Of a DNA stretch of 64,000 bases, positions 50,776 to 58,576 are shown piece after piece. The DNA comes from Aquimarina sp. AU474 (GTDB lineage: Bacteria; Bacteroidota; Bacteroidia; Flavobacteriales; Flavobacteriaceae), in assembly GCF_900312815.1 (NCBI RefSeq), contig NZ_OMPE01000008.1:744001-808000 (forward strand), in the 5' to 3' direction. The position numbers and the translations under genes are program-made. Below the pieces are notes generated by a model that saw nothing but the letters and a program-made list of their open reading frames with translations, made no database searches and was not told the origin of the DNA. Each line of letters opens with the position of its first letter. Positions within the stretch are counted from its first letter, which is position 1.

Positions 50776-52254
50776 TTATATGTTATATACAGTGCTCTTA
50801 TAAAGTTTGTGTTTACTTCTTTCTGCCATTGCCATATTAGATGCAGAGATTATTGATGATTTTTGAGAGGTATCTATAATAGCACTATTTTTTAACTTCT
50901 CAAAGGTTTCGATACAACCTTTACTTATTTTGGAAGAAGTTCCTCTATAAATATTTCTAAGTTTGGATGCAGCCTCTTTCTTTTTCTCTCGTATCAATGC
51001 CACATCTACATCATGAGTATTTAAATCCAAAATTAACTGATGAATCTGCTCCTTAACCCGTAAAGCTAATTTTGCAGATACTTTGTATCGTAATATCGTA
51101 TTATATTTATTAGTTCTTCCGTACACTAAAGAAATTGTAAAACACAAGATTGCAGTAATAAATAAAGAAGTCCCTAGATACAAGTAAGGTGTATATTCAA
51201 TAACTAAAAGTGCAATAGGAATCGTAAGCGCGAACAATACCTGGAGTGTAACAAACAGGTATCTTTGTCCAGTTAGAACCTTGACGCGTTTTTTTTGACT
51301 TTCATAGGTCTTAGACGCATTCTCCTCTAAAGTATTGAGTTGATTCTCAACCACAATCGTATCGGGAAATTCACTACCAAATATTTCTTTCCATTTTTGA
51401 GCGGCTAACCATTGTTGATTATTCTTAGAAAAAGTCATAGCTCTTACTGCCTTTTCATGAGCAATTATAGCCTTATATCTAAAATTAAACGTATTAGGAA
51501 TAACCAGAAAATCCCCAATAGCTTTCCAATCCTTTTTTAATGGTTTTTGCTCCATTAAATACTTAAAGAAATCTTTGCACATTGCATCATAATATGAGTA
51601 CGATTTATTTCTATATCTCCAGAATAATAAAAACTCATAAGCCTGGGTATCAATTAACATATCGGAAATTGGGACTTTGGCATTTTTTTTCCAAATTTTT
51701 GCCATCCTACAAAGCCTTTTGTGATTATCATTGGCGGCTAAGTTTAACATGGTCGTACTTTGTTTTTCCTTACTGAAATTTTTCGTTTCCCAAGTTCCAC
51801 CTTTTCTAGGATCTGCATATATATGCGTATTATTTTCCTTAAAAAAAACAGGAGTTATTTTAAAACACATCTTATCAAAAAAACAAACCTTGATCTCCAG
51901 ACTATCTTGTTCTATTACCGTATTAGGATATATCGCCGATATTGATCTTCTAACATCTTCAAGAAATAAGAACTGACCGTTATTTGGTTTGTCAGAATAT
52001 AGTTGGTACATACGAGATGGCATTTCAAAAAGCATCTCGATCGTCTCTGTACTATTGTTTGCAGTCTCTCTACCGTAGCAACCTACATAAATACCTCCAC
52101 AATAGGTATTTATATCCCAAAAATCATTATTAAGTTTTTTACATATAGAATTATACCGTAGTGAAATTATTGATTTCTTCTTAGTCGAAACTTTCAATTT
52201 ATCGCAAAACACATTAAAATTAGCAGATATACTCATCATTCTAGTTATTTCCAA
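50776..52254 (-). CDS. CD-NTase (SMODS) protein with degenerate active site and 2TM SLATT-like tail
   Basis: A 492-residue protein; initiation at Met7 (52,236) is also plausible. Residues 8-310 follow the SMODS nucleotidyltransferase pattern of CBASS cyclases: RYNSICKKLNNDFWDI, IYVGCYGRETA, LCRMAKIWKKNAKV, and SYYDAMCKDFFKYL. In active enzymes GS is followed by two acids in DxD and a third acid before P. Here they read Gly58-Cys59, Thr71 and Glu73, and Lys132, so catalysis is doubtful. Residues about 320-470 hold two membrane helices and a helical tail like SLATT effector modules. It is followed by a membrane protein gene on the same strand. It could bind rather than make a nucleotide signal. 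Confidence 0.75.
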   Translation of the reverse strand: MEITRMMSISANFNVFCDKLKVSTKKKSIISLRYNSICKKLNNDFWDINTYCGGIYVGCYGRETANNSTETIEMLFEMPSRMYQLYSDKPNNGQFLFLEDVRRSISAIYPNTVIEQDSLEIKVCFFDKMCFKITPVFFKENNTHIYADPRKGGTWETKNFSKEKQSTTMLNLAANDNHKRLCRMAKIWKKNAKVPISDMLIDTQAYEFLLFWRYRNKSYSYYDAMCKDFFKYLMEQKPLKKDWKAIGDFLVIPNTFNFRYKAIIAHEKAVRAMTFSKNNQQWLAAQKWKEIFGSEFPDTIVVENQLNTLEENASKTYESQKKRVKVLTGQRYLFVTLQVLFALTIPIALLVIEYTPYLYLGTSLFITAILCFTISLVYGRTNKYNTILRYKVSAKLALRVKEQIHQLILDLNTHDVDVALIREKKKEAASKLRNIYRGTSSKISKGCIETFEKLKNSAIIDTSQKSSIISASNMAMAERSKHKLYKSTVYNI

Positions 52255-53044: not shown

Positions 53045-55630
53045 TTATTTTTGAATTACTACTTTTTGAGTTATTGTATGCCCTCCATCAGATGTTTCTA
53101 AAACATATAACCCCGAGATCACCTCATCTAATTCTATCCTATTTCGTTTAGCTATACCCGATTTTACCAAACGTCCATTCATATCCATCAACTTATAACT
53201 AAGTTCTCTATTGTCACTAGATTTTAAGTTTATAAATTGAGATGTTGGATTTGGAAACACTTCAGACGAAAATACTTTTCCTTCATTACCCAACTCTCCA
53301 TCTATTTTTACTTTTGATACTTCTGTATTTCTTGCAGAAGATGCCCCTATTGTAACTGTGTAATCTTCAACTTCTCCATAACCAAAGGTTTCACAAGGAG
53401 AGGGAGCGCCGTTCCACTTCATAGAGACTCTCATTCTTGTATTTCCAACCGTTGCATTAGAGGGTACCGTAAAATTGTATGATAAATTACCTGCATTAGA
53501 TGTAGATCCTGATACAACTTTCTCCGAGGATTCAAAAGATCCGTTTTTATTAAAATCTATCCATACTCCCCAGTGCTCGTTATAAGATGCACTTACAAAC
53601 CCAACACTTAATACAATTGTATTTGAACCATAAGATAAATTCCCTACTTGTGCGGTAAAATCTCCATATCCAGAATTGGCAGCAGTAGTATTAGAAATCC
53701 CACCAACACCAACATAATCTATAAATTCATAATTGACAGTATTTCCTTTTGAAGAGCAATAAGAAACTACAATATCTTGCGTAGTAACACTTAGTGCATT
53801 ACTACTACTCGAATTATTACCCGAAGCATCAAAAGCAGCTATTGTAAAACTATATGTTGTACCTGCAGTTAACCCAGAAACATTATAATTAGTTGTAGCA
53901 ATCGTTCCTAAAAGAGTTCCATTTTGATATACAGTATATCCCGTTACTCCAATATTATCTGTAGACGCTGACCAAGATAAACTAGCACTAGTTTGCCCAA
54001 TACTCGAAGCGGTTAAATTTGATGGTATCGAAGGTGCTTGAGTATCTGGGCCAGAACCTCCTCCTCCATTAAAAGTATGGTTTCCCAGATCACCAAACGT
54101 ATTTTGAGAAAAAGAATCCCACTCTGAAGTTGTATAATTTGTAGATGGAGATGATACTTCTGATTTTCTTCGTAAAGTTACATCCTTGGCAAAATTAGAA
54201 GAACCTCCACTAAATGTTCCAATAACATCAATCAAAACTCCATTTTTAAATAAACCTACTGGATCATTTCCATTAAAAACCATTTCTGTAGATGATGACA
54301 ATACATCAGCTTCATTCTTGATCGTATTAGTTGCTGAATTATTTGCTGCCACATAAACTTCGTTATTTGGCAAAGTTCCCGAAAGATTTAATCCAGAAGA
54401 CCAAGATCCAGAACCATTAGTTTGTTTCTTGATAGCATATCCAGAAAGATTAATCGCAACTCCAGTAAAATTAGCTATTTCTAATGCCTTATTGTTAGAA
54501 GATCCTTCGATATACTCTGAAAAAAATAATTCTGTTGCTACTCCTCCTCCCGAAGTATTGTCTTGAGTAGTTACATTAACGGTATTACTCGCTGCCGATA
54601 CATTTCCTGCCGCATCTTTGGCTCTCACAAAGAAGGTGTATGTTGTATTAGCAGTAAGTCCGGATACATTAAAACTAGCCGTCGAGCTAGTATTAAGTAA
54701 AGAACCATCTCTATATATATCATAACCAGTAACCCCAACATTATCTGTAGAGGCATTCCATGTTAATATGGTAGATGTTTCTGTAGTATTATTCGACACA
54801 AGGTTTGAAGGTGTTCCTGGAGCTACAGTATCTTCTCCTCCACCAGTATTTCCAAATCTATCTTCGGCTTGTGGTCCTCCCCATATTTTAGTAGCAAATG
54901 CAGGATTATCTATAAATGGATTTCTATTACCTTGAACACTCTCTAAAACAGGGTTTCTTTGAAGTTCTAATTGTGAAACAGGATCTTCTGCATTCCATTC
55001 TAAAAACAACTGAAGCATATTACTATCACTTGTGGCTGCAGCTCCTATCCCTACATTTTTAGGAAGACATCTGTTTCCATATCTAATATACATATACATC
55101 ATCATACGTGCTACATCTCCTTTCCATTCGTCGCCAGGATACCAATGTCCTTGAGAGGTTGCACCTGAGTTCCCTGATCCATCAGCAAATTTTCTGCTTC
55201 CGCGTGAAGAATTTCGTTGTACATCGGCAGGCCTTAAATGATGGGCATCTGCCCCGGGTCCTTCTGTACCCAAATTAGGATTACCTAAAGATTTGGGATA
55301 TACATGTTCTCTGTTCCAATCTGTAGATCCACCTCCGTTATTATTTACTCCACGGGTTCTATCGGTAGTAGAATTACCATCTGTATCATTAAATCCATAC
55401 ACCAAAATAACCTTAGATGCATCAGTTGGATCTATATCGCTTTGTTTTAAAGCATCCCATACTCCAGGTGTGTATGTTAGAAAAGTTACATGCGTATTGG
55501 TAACTTTTGTTCCTAATTCTGTCTGTAAAGATTGCCCCGTAAGATTTATATTTACATCATTGTAATACGCTGGGACTTGGCTATATCCAATAGCCGAAAC
55601 TGCCAGCAGCAATAGTAGTACTTTTTTCAT
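53045..55630 (-). CDS. Secreted endonuclease I-family protein with T9SS sorting domain
   Basis: An 861-residue exported protein. A signal peptide (1-18) is followed by an endonuclease I domain (about 24-260) with the His-metal motif DWNREHVYPKSLG and ADAHHLRPADVQRN. Then come an FN3 domain (about 270-355), a lamin-tail-like domain (about 365-520), a second FN3 (about 530-620), a GEVED-type beta domain (about 675-770, CETFGYGEVEDYTV), and a C-terminal type A sorting domain (PNPTSQFINL to TQKVVIQK). It is released or surface-anchored by type IX secretion, and probably degrades extracellular DNA or RNA for nutrients. Confidence 0.9.
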   Translation of the reverse strand: MKKVLLLLLAVSAIGYSQVPAYYNDVNINLTGQSLQTELGTKVTNTHVTFLTYTPGVWDALKQSDIDPTDASKVILVYGFNDTDGNSTTDRTRGVNNNGGGSTDWNREHVYPKSLGNPNLGTEGPGADAHHLRPADVQRNSSRGSRKFADGSGNSGATSQGHWYPGDEWKGDVARMMMYMYIRYGNRCLPKNVGIGAAATSDSNMLQLFLEWNAEDPVSQLELQRNPVLESVQGNRNPFIDNPAFATKIWGGPQAEDRFGNTGGGEDTVAPGTPSNLVSNNTTETSTILTWNASTDNVGVTGYDIYRDGSLLNTSSTASFNVSGLTANTTYTFFVRAKDAAGNVSAASNTVNVTTQDNTSGGGVATELFFSEYIEGSSNNKALEIANFTGVAINLSGYAIKKQTNGSGSWSSGLNLSGTLPNNEVYVAANNSATNTIKNEADVLSSSTEMVFNGNDPVGLFKNGVLIDVIGTFSGGSSNFAKDVTLRRKSEVSSPSTNYTTSEWDSFSQNTFGDLGNHTFNGGGGSGPDTQAPSIPSNLTASSIGQTSASLSWSASTDNIGVTGYTVYQNGTLLGTIATTNYNVSGLTAGTTYSFTIAAFDASGNNSSSSNALSVTTQDIVVSYCSSKGNTVNYEFIDYVGVGGISNTTAANSGYGDFTAQVGNLSYGSNTIVLSVGFVSASYNEHWGVWIDFNKNGSFESSEKVVSGSTSNAGNLSYNFTVPSNATVGNTRMRVSMKWNGAPSPCETFGYGEVEDYTVTIGASSARNTEVSKVKIDGELGNEGKVFSSEVFPNPTSQFINLKSSDNRELSYKLMDMNGRLVKSGIAKRNRIELDEVISGLYVLETSDGGHTITQKVVIQK

Positions 55631-55975
55631 TGTGTTGTTGTGAGTTAGTATCTTTTAATCAAGCCGAAACTAAAATTATTTTAATAAAGATACCAGCCCA
55701 AAAGGTTACCAAATAGTTATGTAGTATGTTGATAATGTATCATTTAACATCAAAACCATCGTAAATGATTCATTATCAGCTATTTATAAAAAACATAAAT
55801 GTTAATAAGTTATTTCTTACGGTATACACCAGAGTTCTCTTACGAAGCTCCCGTAAATAGTTAAAGCGATACTCTATTTAAAGCAATATTCCCTCATAAA
55901 TATTGCGGTTTTCGGGTAACCGACTATGGATTATTTAAAGTAAATTTATCATCCAACTTTAATATATTACGCAAA

Positions 55976-56020
55976 ATGAAAAAATCTAAAATTTTAGAAG
56001 GCCATTTCATTTTCTTTTAA
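55976..56020 (+). CDS. Short leader-like peptide frame (14 residues)
   Basis: The frame MKKSKILEGHFIFF is followed directly by a strong terminator hairpin. It starts like the peptide leaders downstream (MKKILxL) but stops before a core. It could be a regulatory leader peptide, a truncated family member, or chance. Nothing else in the sequence decides between these. Confidence 0.3.
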   Translation: MKKSKILEGHFIFF

Positions 56021-56033
56021 AGCTTAAAGAATT

Positions 56034-56059
56034 AAAGGCAAATCTTAAGATTTGCCTTT
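56034..56059 (+). terminator. Strong hairpin terminator
   Basis: AAAGGCAAATCTTAAGATTTGCCTTT is a perfect 13-base palindrome followed by TTTT. It sits just after the 14-residue frame at 55,976, about 210 bases before the first peptide gene. Confidence 0.7.
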
Positions 56060-56271
56060 TTTTATTCATGTTCCTTTTTCCTTTCCCTATATCTTTTTTG
56101 TTTCATTTTAAAGTTACCATTGTTTACAGTATATATCTTATACAAGAGCAGTATTCGCAAATCAATTAGTTGTTGAAATTTATAAATATCAAGAACTTAA
56201 ACTTGTGACCTAAAGGTCTTTCTAATATTTTTAGGTATCAATTTCATTAACTCTTAAAAACCTATTAACAG

Positions 56272-56460
56272 ATGAAAAAAATCTTAGGACTAACAGGAAT
56301 TCAAACTATTAGCAAACAAGAACAACAAGGAATTAAAGGATCTTGGGGCCGCAGAGTATATTGCGGAGCGCCAAATATGTGTTGTACTAGACTCCCAAAT
56401 GGAGGTGAATGGTGCGATTTTGGATATTGCCAATCAAACGGGAATTGTATTTGGGCCTAA
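56272..56460 (+). CDS. Six-cysteine peptide precursor A
   Basis: A 62-residue precursor. The leader MKKILGLTGIQTISKQEQQ ends in GIKGS, a double-glycine-like processing site near residue 23. The core of about 39 residues has six cysteines in the pattern C-x5-CC-x10-C-x3-C-x5-C, closing in IWA. It is likely exported by a peptidase-containing ABC transporter not present here. Three disulphides are probable. First of a three-gene run. Confidence 0.75.
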   Translation: MKKILGLTGIQTISKQEQQGIKGSWGRRVYCGAPNMCCTRLPNGGEWCDFGYCQSNGNCIWA

Positions 56461-56481
56461 AATTGTTTAAAGAAGCTATTT

Positions 56482-56676
56482 ATGAAAAAGATTCTAGAGC
56501 TCACAGGAGTACAAAAATTAAGTAGAAAACAACAGGTACACATAAATGGAGCTCGCAGAGTTCTTACTTGTTGTCCTTCTGGTAGAGGTTGTCAAATCAG
56601 TTTTCCAGAATTTGGAATCCAATTTTGTGAACCTGGTGCATGCAGTAGCGACGGTAGATGTCTCTTTCTTGCATAA
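56482..56676 (+). CDS. Six-cysteine peptide precursor B
   Basis: A 64-residue precursor. The leader MKKILELTGVQKLSRKQQ is nearly that of precursor C and ends in HINGA. The core has CC-x5-C-x12-C-x4-C-x5-C with the CEPGxC phrase, six cysteines in all. It lies 21 bases after precursor A and is probably co-transcribed with A and C. Confidence 0.75.
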   Translation: MKKILELTGVQKLSRKQQVHINGARRVLTCCPSGRGCQISFPEFGIQFCEPGACSSDGRCLFLA

Positions 56677-56713
56677 AATGTATTAGAATTATTAACTTTT
56701 TAAATATTCACTT

Positions 56714-56893
56714 ATGAAAAAAATCTTAGAATTAAACGGGGTACAAAAACTCAGTAGAAAAGAACAAGTAAAGATTAACGGTGCCGGATTTGGCGGTTGC
56801 TGTAGTCCTAATCAATGCCGTGTTAGCTTTCCTGGAGGAAGTTTTTGTGAGCCAGGCCGTTGCCTTTCTTGGGGTGGTTGCATATTCTACTAG
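56714..56893 (+). CDS. Six-cysteine peptide precursor C
   Basis: A 59-residue precursor not listed by length-limited gene callers. The leader MKKILELNGVQKLSRKEQ ends in KINGAG. The core has CC-x4-C-x9-C-x4-C-x5-C with CEPGRC, again six cysteines. It lies 37 bases after precursor B and is followed by a terminator, closing the A-B-C transcript. Confidence 0.75.
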   Translation: MKKILELNGVQKLSRKEQVKINGAGFGGCCSPNQCRVSFPGGSFCEPGRCLSWGGCIFY

Positions 56894-56908
56894 AAAGAAT
56901 AACATTAC

Positions 56909-56935
56909 AAAGGTTGAGTCTGTGACTCAACCTTT
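56909..56935 (+). terminator. Terminator after precursor C
   Basis: The stem AAAGGTTGAGTC, loop TGT and GACTCAACCTTT form a perfect 12-base hairpin followed by TTT. It splits the peptide cluster into two transcripts. Confidence 0.75.
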
Positions 56936-56968
56936 TTTCATTATACTATAACACAAAATCATCTCATT

Positions 56969-57118
56969 ATGAAAAAAAAAGACATTAAAACTTTAAAACT
57001 AGACAAACAGACGATCGCAATTGCAAACTCTAATATGATTAAAGGAGGAAGAGTTCCTACCGCTACATCAAAATATACAGTTTGCGGATGCGTTACTGCG
57101 CGATCTGTTCGCTGTTAA
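56969..57118 (+). CDS. Lanthipeptide-like leader peptide precursor D
   Basis: A 49-residue precursor unlike A-C. The leader MKKKDIKTLKLDKQTIAIAN ends in IKGG, a double-glycine site at residues 26-27. This form (MKKKxIKxLxLxKxxI) is typical of Bacteroidota class I lanthipeptide-type precursors. The core RVPTATSKYTVCGCVTARSV and RC is Thr/Ser-rich with three cysteines, which fits dehydration and thioether bridging. No lanthionine dehydratase or cyclase gene lies in the window, so any modification enzyme must act from elsewhere. Confidence 0.65.
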   Translation: MKKKDIKTLKLDKQTIAIANSNMIKGGRVPTATSKYTVCGCVTARSVRC

Positions 57119-57148
57119 TCGACAATTCATTATATCTAATCATAAACA

Positions 57149-57343
57149 ATGAAAAAGCTCTTAAAATTTCCAGGAATAGAACAACTGGATAGAAAACAAC
57201 AAGCAAAAATAACAGGTTCAGACACCATCATAAGAGTGCGATGTTGCGGAAGCCGTAAATGCATGATCATTTACAATTCTGGAACACAATCTTGTGTACC
57301 TGGTTATTGTTCTGAAAGGGGAGGTAATTGTGTTATATTTTAA
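57149..57343 (+). CDS. Six-cysteine peptide precursor E
   Basis: A 64-residue precursor of the A-C type. The leader MKKLLKFPGIEQLDRKQQ ends in ITGS. The core has CC-x4-C-x10-C-x4-C-x6-C with CVPGYC, six cysteines. It lies 30 bases after precursor D, so a six-cysteine and a lanthipeptide-like precursor share one transcript. It is more diverged than A-C. Confidence 0.75.
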   Translation: MKKLLKFPGIEQLDRKQQAKITGSDTIIRVRCCGSRKCMIIYNSGTQSCVPGYCSERGGNCVIF

Positions 57344-57352
57344 AACCTCTTT

Positions 57353-57388
57353 TTAATTAAGGATGAATCAATATTCATCCTTAATTAA
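57353..57388. terminator. Bidirectional terminator between the peptide cluster and ackA
   Basis: TTAATTAAGGATGAAT, loop CAAT, and ATTCATCCTTAATTAA form a perfect 16-base stem. It serves both the + strand peptide genes and the minus-strand ackA, which ends at 57,392. Confidence 0.8.
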
Positions 57389-57391
57389 ACT

Positions 57392-58576
57392 TTATCCTAG
57401 TAATTGAAAAGATTGTTTGGCAATCTCTAATTCCTCATCTGTTGGAATTACTAATATTTTTGTTTTTGATGAAGGTAAACTTATATCTCTTATCTCCTTA
57501 GATCTTATACCATTCTTTTCTTTATCCAATTGTAATCCCAAGAAATCCATATCCTTGCAAACCATCTTTCTGATCACATCAGAATTCTCGCCTATACCTG
57601 CGGTAAAAACAATAGCATCTAATCCATTCATTATGGCTGCATAGGATCCTATAAACTTTTTGATACGGTATGCATTCATCTTTAATGCTAATCTACAATC
57701 AGAATTTCCTTTATTGGCCTCAGCTTCTATATCCCTAAGATCACTATATCCAGTAAGCCCCAGCATTCCACTTTCTTTTTGTAATAACATATTTACTTCA
57801 TCCAAAGAATGACCTAAAGCATTTACCATATAAAATATGACCGCGGGATCGATATCTCCAGATCTTGTACCCATAATCAATCCATTCATAGGAGCAAATC
57901 CTAGGGTATGATCAATACTTTTTCCGTTTTCTACAGCAGTCATACTACAACCATTACCTAAATGAATTGTAATTATTTTGGCTGCATCTTTATCAAGATA
58001 CTCAATGGCTTTTTGTGAAACGTATTTATGGCTTGTACCATGAAAACCATATAGTCTTATATTATTCTCTTCAAGATACTTATTAGGTATAGCATATTTG
58101 TGTGCTTCTACCGGTATAGTTTGATGAAATGCAGTATCAAAAACGGCTATTTGTTTGGCTTGAGGAAAAATTTCTTCTGCTACCAGTATACCTTCAAGAT
58201 TTGCTGGATTATGAAGTGGTGCCAAAGCCGAAAGATCGCTTATCTTTTGTTTCACTTCTTTATTTATCAACACTGTTTTAGAAAAAGTACTCCCTCCATG
58301 AACTACACGATGCCCTACTGCATCAACCTCTGAAGCCGATTGTAGTACTCCTATTTTTTTATCCATCAAGTATGTTGCTATCAATTGTAAGCCATCCTTA
58401 TGTGTCTTAATTGGACTCACTTTTTCTATCTTATCAGAACTTGTAGTGTAATTGATTATAGCATTATCTAATCCTATTCGTTCTACAAGGCCAGAGCAAA
58501 TAACAGCTGCTTCTGGCATATTAAACAGTTGAAACTTTATAGAAGAGCTTCCTGAATTTAGTACTAATATTCTCAT
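57392..58576 (-). CDS. ackA: Acetate kinase
   Basis: A 394-residue enzyme of full family length. It starts RILVLNSGSSSIKFQLF, with later FDTAFHQTIP, GTSHKYVS, HLGNGCSMTAV and DGLDAIVFTAGIGENS. These are the signature blocks of acetate kinase, which converts acetyl phosphate and ADP to acetate and ATP in the cytosol. It lies 12 bases behind pta and forms the overflow-metabolism operon pta-ackA. Confidence 0.97.
   Translation of the reverse strand: MRILVLNSGSSSIKFQLFNMPEAAVICSGLVERIGLDNAIINYTTSSDKIEKVSPIKTHKDGLQLIATYLMDKKIGVLQSASEVDAVGHRVVHGGSTFSKTVLINKEVKQKISDLSALAPLHNPANLEGILVAEEIFPQAKQIAVFDTAFHQTIPVEAHKYAIPNKYLEENNIRLYGFHGTSHKYVSQKAIEYLDKDAAKIITIHLGNGCSMTAVENGKSIDHTLGFAPMNGLIMGTRSGDIDPAVIFYMVNALGHSLDEVNMLLQKESGMLGLTGYSDLRDIEAEANKGNSDCRLALKMNAYRIKKFIGSYAAIMNGLDAIVFTAGIGENSDVIRKMVCKDMDFLGLQLDKEKNGIRSKEIRDISLPSSKTKILVIPTDEELEIAKQSFQLLG

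What the first reader, a model, noticed from the sequence alone, without database searches (positions are those of the whole stretch)
56272..57343. Family of six-cysteine peptides on a shared double-glycine-like leader
Four precursors share MKKxLxxxGxxxLxRKxQ leaders and a core with a CC pair, a single C, then CxPGxC or a close variant and a last C, always six cysteines. Leaders are more alike than cores, as in diversified secreted peptide families. They may be disulphide-rich antimicrobial or signalling peptides of Bacteroidota. No export or modification gene is nearby, so a transporter elsewhere should serve them.
Basis: partly seen in the sequence, partly recalled or inferred. Interest (0 to 1): 0.8.

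Follow-up and report, generated by a model that had tools for sequence, protein, structure and literature searches.

The report
Array of exported six-cysteine mini-proteins
A marine bacterium carries a tandem set of tiny proteins, each with six cysteines and probably secreted and locked by sulphur bridges, that its genus has kept and reshuffled, probably as weapons or signals.

Summary
The four precursors are real: 62, 64, 59 and 64 aa, each with six cysteines. Their family is centred on Aquimarina: 51 of 66 genomes of the window's genus match, 48 strongly, against the same two genomes outside the genus in the order and phylum samples of 395. In 44 arrays, 131 of 133 leader-bearing frames have exactly six core cysteines. 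Five are fixed; the sixth sits beside the first (type B) or the third (type A). Leader and core are under purifying selection. No exporter, oxidase or LanC relative lies in 60 array stretches, but the genome has three C39-peptidase ABC exporters and a VKOR/C39-like/thioredoxin fusion. That fusion or a relative occurs in 51 of 51 family-positive and 3 of 15 family-negative genus genomes, and precursors of the same leader class crowd around it. A 20-bp palindrome lies 70-85 bp before many array genes. Best reading: double-glycine-type, three-disulphide mini-proteins exported and oxidised in trans, bacteriocin-like. Export and disulphides are inferred; antibacterial action is a guess from precedent. 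The four pass no curated cut-off.

The parts
56173..56192 (.). 20-bp palindrome TTGAAATTTATAAATATCAA, putative operator, 79 bp before the first start codon
   Evidence: Exact match; the only site in the window at up to 3 mismatches, where shuffles average 0.37. In 812 kb of 44 array stretches 26 of 26 sites at up to one mismatch lie 70-85 bp before a leader ORF. 8 sites in own genome at up to 2 mismatches versus 0 for the reversed control
56272..56460 (+). precursor 1, type A (C-x5-CC-x9-C-x4-C-x5-C), 62 aa; predicted mature part 56344-56457, 38 aa
56482..56676 (+). precursor 2, type B (CC first), 64 aa; predicted mature part 56554-56673, 40 aa
56714..56893 (+). precursor 3, type B, 59 aa; predicted mature part 56786-56890, 35 aa; protein identical to L056:10225-10404
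56909..56935 (+). intrinsic-terminator-like hairpin after precursor 3
   Evidence: 6 such sites in the scanned 1.8 kb; shuffles mean 0.7
56969..57118 (+). fifth precursor-like ORF, 49 aa, different leader ending IKGG; weak class I lanthipeptide leader match below cut-off
   Evidence: NF038153, E 0.33; about 80% identical homologue in L056 and L144, probably the same species twice
57149..57343 (+). precursor 4, type B, 64 aa; predicted mature part 57221-57340, 40 aa
57352..57389 (+). intrinsic-terminator-like hairpin after precursor 4
55975..56019 (+). probable remnant of a decayed array member, followed by a terminator-like hairpin at 56034-56059
   Evidence: sequence; similarity of 55930-55992 to starts of array genes elsewhere; hairpin
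53045..55630 (-). divergent neighbour: endonuclease I with fn3, LTD, GEVED and a secretion-system C-terminal sorting domain; conserved neighbour in the genus, probably not a functional part
   Evidence: not linked outside the genus

Best explanation
The locus is a tandem array of precursors of secreted, three-disulphide mini-proteins. A dimeric regulator probably acts at the upstream palindrome. The 24-residue leader (L/I at -12, I at -4, G at -2, A/S at -1) is recognised by C39-type proteins encoded elsewhere: a C39-peptidase ABC exporter cuts the leader after G-A or G-S and exports the 35-40 residue core, and a VKOR/C39-like/thioredoxin fusion supplies disulphides. The folded all-beta core is released and most likely acts as a bacteriocin-like weapon against related bacteria, the several copies giving several target specificities. 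Shown: the family, its cysteine conservation, selection, the presence of exporter and oxidase genes, their co-occurrence, and clustering of the leader class with the oxidase gene. Inferred: which exporter acts, the cleavage site, disulphide formation, the regulator. Guessed from precedent: the antibacterial role.
For: 131 of 133 leader-bearing frames on the array strand, within 700 bp of a six-Cys member in 44 arrays, have exactly six core Cys, with C4-x4-C5 spacing in 131 of 131. dN/dS 0.285 leader, 0.482 core. The four window leaders, found without any pattern of mine, have L or I at -12, I at -4, G at -2 and S or A at -1. Own genome: three C39 ABC exporters over the curated cut-off plus the VKOR/C39-like/thioredoxin protein. 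VKOR-C39, at any similarity with E up to 1e-20, in 51 of 51 family-positive and 3 of 15 family-negative genus genomes (Fisher 9e-11; genomes at least 90% complete and at most 5% contaminated 48 of 48 versus 3 of 10, 4e-7). The C39 ABC at G000:C6 has a match of at least 83% identity in all 48 strong family genomes; in one, G331, the match lacks the C39 domain. 61 leader-class precursors lie within 1.5 kb of VKOR-C39 in 20 of the 30 best loci, versus 10 in 642 kb of array flanks. In some relatives VKOR-C39, C39 ABC and HlyD-like genes are adjacent. Bacteroidetocins are a precedent: GG leader, signs of disulphides, C39 ABC, thiol oxidoreductase, antibacterial (PMC6671954, passages).
Against: No activity, cleavage or disulphide has been observed. 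No immunity gene was recognised in the array, although bacteroidetocins also lack one. Inheritance looks largely vertical (Mantel r 0.67 between type A and nuclease distances) and cores are conserved, unlike typical patchy bacteriocins. -1 is E, R or K in 3 of 131. Some genomes keep only broken copies at the site (G309; G349). Co-occurrence with VKOR-C39 and exporter is confounded by phylogeny, genome size and completeness; 7 of 15 family-negative genomes have a C39 domain. 10 of 30 VKOR loci, including the own genome's, have no precursor of this class within 1.5 kb. The C39-like part of the VKOR protein aligns only from profile position 26 and scores just below Pfam's cut-off (21.2 against 22), so it may only bind leaders. 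No palindrome lies in the 30 VKOR loci.
Confidence: 0.55

Rival explanations
1. The same secreted three-disulphide mini-proteins act on eukaryotes (algae, invertebrates, fungi) rather than on bacteria, like toxin scaffolds with a constant leader.
For: Several copies without a recognised immunity gene; compact all-beta Cys-rich models; antifungal proteins PAF and PAFB are among the weak Foldseek rows (E 1.7 and 3.2, not significant). The genus lives on marine hosts (recalled).
Against: No significant fold match to anything; no virulence context noticed; bacteroidetocins show that lack of immunity is compatible with antibacterial action.
Confidence: 0.17
2. They are extracellular signals or developmental peptides used between cells of the same genus.
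For: Genus-wide, largely vertical inheritance, purifying selection, a type A copy in 32 of 44 arrays, an operator-like palindrome shared with other leader peptides of the same genome.
Against: No sensor kinase or receptor noticed in the conserved neighbourhood (gene starts read by eye, not searched); three-disulphide cores are large for pheromones; one array holds up to six members.
Confidence: 0.13
3. The cores are enzymatically cross-linked RiPPs (lanthionine or other thioether), not disulphide peptides.
For: An ORF with a lanthipeptide-like leader sits inside the array and the genome has a LanC-like gene with a same-leader-class precursor nearby.
Against: No relative of that LanC-like protein or of the protein beside it in 60 array stretches (other modification enzymes were not searched); six core cysteines in 131 of 133; VKOR-C39, an oxidase, tracks the family.
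Confidence: 0.08
4. The peptides are partners or inhibitors of the neighbouring secreted endonuclease.
For: Nuclease match 290-1342 bp away (best tblastn segment) in 40 of 41 stretches with intact members where the contig allows the test.
Against: Outside the genus the peptides are on other contigs than the nuclease matches listed, and no nuclease lies in the stretches fetched around them (G431, G555, G179); G350 and second loci of three genomes (L079, L113, L114) lack it; the genes are divergent.
Confidence: 0.04
5. Untranslated or chance reading frames.
For: None of the four passes a curated model.
Against: Recurrence in 48 genomes of the genus and reading-frame-specific selection.
Confidence: 0.01

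Closest known systems
Bacteroidetocins (class IIf bacteriocins, PMC6671954; passages seen)
   Same: Bacteroidota; short precursor; GG-type leader; 35-50 residue core with cysteines; C39 ABC exporter and thiol oxidoreductase; no immunity gene
   Different: 15-16 aa leader, four Cys in bacteroidetocins A and B, and exporter genes beside the precursor; here a 24 aa leader of another class, six Cys, tandem arrays, exporter elsewhere. The own genome has two cassettes of that layout (TM protein, redoxin, C39 ABC) with their own short-leader peptides
NCBIfam NF047798 leader_Chryseo, 'bacteriocin-like protein'
   Same: End of the leader resembles it in 14 of 49 members at E up to 0.1, best 9.3e-4
   Different: Best window score 14.4 against a cut-off of 23.5; an 18-residue leader model that says nothing of the core
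Class II microcins (e.g. microcin V)
   Same: Gram-negative, double-glycine leader, C39 ABC plus HlyD-like protein, disulphides possible (recalled; papers seen only in a search listing)
   Different: No local exporter or recognised immunity gene; known ones come from Enterobacterales (listing); core relatedness not tested beyond
Class I lanthipeptides of Bacteroidota
   Same: GG leaders; one lanthipeptide-like ORF in the array
   Different: Different leader class; no relative of the own genome's LanC-like protein at the arrays; six fixed Cys

Membership tests
Bacteroidetocins | 15-16 aa leader ending in GG | tested here: not met
   24-residue leader ending GS, GA, GA, GS in the window; in 131 members -1 is A in 90, S in 29, T in 9, E, R or K in 3, G in none although the pattern allowed G; G does occur in one further genus member (L078)
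Bacteroidetocins | TM protein, thiol oxidoreductase and C39 ABC beside the precursor | tested here: not met
   No tblastn match at E 1e-6 to the own genome's C39 domains, redoxins or TM protein in 60 stretches (window, 15 named loci, 44 unnamed-genome loci that overlap them in species; positive control found all). Nearest C39 ABC in the own genome about 111 kb away
Bacteroidetocins | kills Bacteroidales | not testable with these tools
   needs peptide and growth assay
NF047798 leader_Chryseo | score above curated cut-off 23.5 bits | tested here: not met
   11.5 and 14.4 bits for two window members, no match for the other two
Double-glycine leader peptides exported by C39 ABC transporters (general kind) | leader with hydrophobic -4 and -12 and small -2/-1 (recalled) | tested here: met
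   All four window leaders. In the 131 wider members the search pattern itself demanded G at -2, a hydrophobic residue at -4 and -12 and a limited set at -1, -7 and -8, so they add little. -7 is Q, not the hydrophobic residue of the classical motif (recalled), in 129 of 131
Double-glycine leader peptides exported by C39 ABC transporters (general kind) | C39 ABC exporter in the genome | tested here: met
   a C39 domain in 51 of 51 family-positive genus genomes
Double-glycine leader peptides exported by C39 ABC transporters (general kind) | cleavage after the small residue | not testable with these tools
   needs mass spectrometry
Class I lanthipeptides | LanB and LanC beside the precursor | tested here: inconclusive
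   no relative of the own genome's LanC-like protein and its neighbour at the arrays; other LanB/LanC families were not searched
Known disulphide-rich folds in the PDB | significant sequence or fold match | tested here: inconclusive
   profile of the type B-led alignment best E 6; Foldseek best E 0.92 and 3.2; VIA-align no row and one row at Z 2.4, rmsd 2.6, 34 aligned

The most novel reading that the evidence does not exclude
Aquimarina and relatives run a genome-wide secreted mini-protein system: many scattered precursors with one leader class, sharing one exporter, a dedicated VKOR/C39-like/thioredoxin maturase that holds the leader while it oxidises the core, and, for part of them, one palindromic operator; the six-cysteine array is its most conserved branch, a scaffold that diversifies by moving one cysteine between two positions and by recombining heads and tails.
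Probability: 0.3. Interest if true: 0.8.

Novelty: new variant of a known kind. Interest (0 to 1): 0.58.

Why it matters
If right, a marine genus holds a conserved, unannotated family of natural three-disulphide mini-proteins made in trans by a shared export and oxidation machinery, so gene-cluster miners that look for local transporters would miss it. The moving cysteine gives a natural series for studying how disulphide scaffolds evolve, and the VKOR-C39 fusion is a concrete candidate for a leader-guided disulphide maturase. No paper on this family turned up in the ten word searches made; they cover only open PubMed Central papers, and most hits were seen as listings.

Tried and rejected
Curated families: no hit over cut-off for the four precursors; scanning 49 aligned members at E up to 0.1 gave only weak matches, among them PF14406 Bacteroid_pep in 3 members (best E 0.0083), PF23597 in 1 (0.0032) and TIGR04194 in 1 (0.019). 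Solved structures: best E 6. Fold libraries: nothing significant for either model. Phage and plasmid records: no match for precursor 3, the only one tried. Rfam on 55600-57400: two matches, both below the gathering score. Sigma-70 scan: 6 sites, shuffles mean 7.4. A functional link to the nuclease was considered and set aside. A hallmark of an arms race, overall positive selection, was not found. Papers PMC5524665, PMC10734526 and PMC10352776 were seen as passages only and do not describe the family there.

Counting choices. One search required six cysteines and at least four and CC; one search missed one L053 member, read by hand. One search demanded six cysteines by pattern. One search used the leader alone, but only within 700 bp of a member found and on that strand; it is the count reported. 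The 44 stretches are best-hit loci of 44 of the 66 genus genomes, chosen from the printed list; L151 (G309, only a broken copy) was left out and the window added, giving 44 arrays. G177 (one member, L078), G310, G349 and the weak genomes G321, G326, G336 are not in that count. The nuclease loci of G310 and G349 were looked at later: no intact member, and in G349 a copy broken by stops between ackA and nuclease. The background is array flanks only, and only the best 30 VKOR loci were examined. In the family-level sample 22 of 299 genomes matched, but most of these matches cover the leader, and cores read resemble the array only in the genus and in G179.

Full report
Observation. Three have CC first (type B: CC-x4/5-C-x9 to x11-C-x4-C-x5/6-C); the first has the order C-x5-CC-x9-C-x4-C-x5-C (type A), CDFGYC instead of CxPGxC, and a leader that departs from the stated consensus. 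A fifth ORF (56969-57118) has another leader ending in IKGG and a sub-threshold class I lanthipeptide leader match. A decayed copy seems to lie at 55975-56019. Terminator-like hairpins follow precursor 3 and precursor 4, so there are probably two transcription units. The predicted cores are 35-40 residues and only weakly basic (2-5 K/R against 1-3 D/E).

Family. A search of named genome contigs returned 15 loci, 14 labelled Aquimarina and one an unclassified Bacteroidia MAG, with two to six members each. In the window's own genus 51 of 66 genomes match the family profile at E up to 0.001, 48 of them below 1e-12; in at least two of the 48 (G309, G349) the site holds only a broken copy. Outside the genus, two genomes of one other genus carry two members each: besides the own genome they are the only matches in the order sample (3 of 395 in all) and in the phylum sample (the same 3 of 395). 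A genome of a third genus has a single related peptide (G179).

Anatomy. In 44 arrays (43 unnamed-genome stretches with an intact member plus the window) a leader-only criterion, applied within 700 bp of known members, finds 133 frames; 131 have exactly six core cysteines, the other two are short frames with two. Of the 131, 35 are type A and 96 type B, and C4-x4-C5 never varies. In an alignment of 50 cores five cysteines are invariant, and the sixth follows either the first or the third. Some members, such as L047:9323-9499, join a type B head to a type A tail, which suggests recombination between copies. Type A occurs in 32 of 44 arrays, exactly once in 30. Distances of single type A precursors follow those of the neighbouring nuclease domain (Mantel r 0.67, 0 of 2000 permutations as high, 30 arrays), so inheritance is largely vertical.

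Selection. Over 387 cross-locus pairs with dS between 0.1 and 0.8, which overlap and are not independent, dN/dS is 0.285 for the leader and 0.482 for the core; mean identity is 0.66 and 0.47. Both parts behave as translated and constrained; the core is freer. There is no sign of overall positive selection.

Fold. AlphaFold models of the mature type A and type B cores from family alignments are all-beta with mean pLDDT 80.9 and 84.3 but pTM 0.48. No significant match was found in the PDB by sequence or fold. Disulphide connectivity could not be read.

Neighbourhood. An endonuclease I with a secretion-system sorting tail lies next to the array in 15 of 15 named loci and in 40 of 41 unnamed-genome stretches with intact members where the contig allows the test (L154 is the exception, L157 and L158 end too soon). 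Acetate kinase is on the other flank in 11 of 15 and present in 34 of 44 stretches. The two sets overlap in species. Outside the genus no nuclease lies in the stretches fetched around the peptides, and the matches listed are on other contigs of those genomes; second loci in the genus (L079, L113, L114) lack it too. I read the linkage as inherited synteny. No C39 domain, redoxin, VKOR, HlyD-like or LanC-like relative of the own genome's proteins was found in 60 array stretches; the positive control found them all.

Export and oxidation. The own genome has three C39 ABC exporters over the curated cut-off and a VKOR/C39-like/thioredoxin fusion. Two exporters sit in cassettes laid out like those of bacteroidetocins (membrane protein, redoxin, C39 ABC) with their own short-leader peptides; the third is beside an HlyD-like gene. 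A match of at least 83% identity to the third is found in all 48 strong family genomes, 47 full length and one (G331) without the C39 domain; of the 18 other genomes G326 has 93% and G356 82%, the rest 75% or less or none at this threshold. VKOR-C39, close or distant, is in 51 of 51 family-positive and 3 of 15 family-negative genomes; any C39 domain in 51 of 51 and 7 of 15. These associations are confounded by phylogeny, size and completeness, although they hold in high-quality genomes (48 of 48 versus 3 of 10 for VKOR-C39). In a different kind of evidence, precursors with the same leader class crowd around VKOR-C39: 61 in 20 of the 30 best loci within 1.5 kb, against 10 in 642 kb of array flanks. 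The own genome's copy has none of that class beside it.

Regulation. A 20-bp palindrome, TTGAnATTTATAAATnTCAA, lies 79 bp before the first start codon. At up to one mismatch there are 26 sites in 812 kb of array stretches, all 70-85 bp before a leader ORF; many of these are related by descent. Three more sites were found in 535 kb of other stretches: two lie 67 bp before a pair of same-leader-class peptides in the own genome, and one, in the G177 array, is 282 bp before its gene and so outside the limit used. The own genome has 8 sites at up to two mismatches against 0 for the reversed control; three precede GG-leader precursors by 68-145 bp, the other five do not. No site lay in the 30 VKOR loci. 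The regulator is unknown.

Comparison. Bacteroidetocins (PMC6671954; passages read) are the closest characterised system: they probably work alike, but leader length, cysteine number and local cassette differ, so the array is not filed as a member. NF047798 is a sub-threshold leader resemblance. Microcins and animal toxin scaffolds are recalled analogies only.

Verdict. A real, conserved, apparently unnamed family of six-cysteine mini-proteins on an export-type leader, a new variant of a known kind. Secretion and oxidation in trans are supported by genomic association, not shown; the antibacterial role is the best guess.

Noticed in passing
window 50776-52254 (-): SMODS nucleotidyltransferase fused to a C-terminal stretch with a weak SLATT_4 match (20 bits, cut-off 27), a CBASS-like defence protein, with relatives 3-5 kb from the array in several genus loci.
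   Followed up: partly
window 56969-57118 (+): Lanthipeptide-like precursor inside the array, about 80% identical in L056 and L144 and weakly similar in L050, L117 and L158.
   Followed up: partly
L069:5790-8077 (own genome C7): LanC-like gene with two other-leader precursors and one four-Cys precursor on the array's leader class.
   Followed up: no
L074:7346-7570 (own genome C10): 74-aa precursor on the same leader class with many more cysteines than the array cores.
   Followed up: no
L066:7365-11590 and L067:6750-14280 (own genome): Two cassettes laid out like bacteroidetocin regions, with several short-leader glycine-rich or cysteine peptides.
   Followed up: partly
L173-L196 near VKOR-C39: Other precursor families of the same leader class, one with a nearly invariant ...SCCYHNGxTWVQGPPCF core end across many species.
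   Followed up: no
own genome C7:1449687, C9:99418, C6:302068: Further copies of the palindrome 94-155 bp upstream of ORFs of at least 448, 456 and 115 codons that are not GG-leader precursors.
   Followed up: partly
L213:6688-7264 (G349) and G309:C20:25748-25930: Array members broken by stops between ackA and the nuclease, signs of loss at the site.
   Followed up: partly
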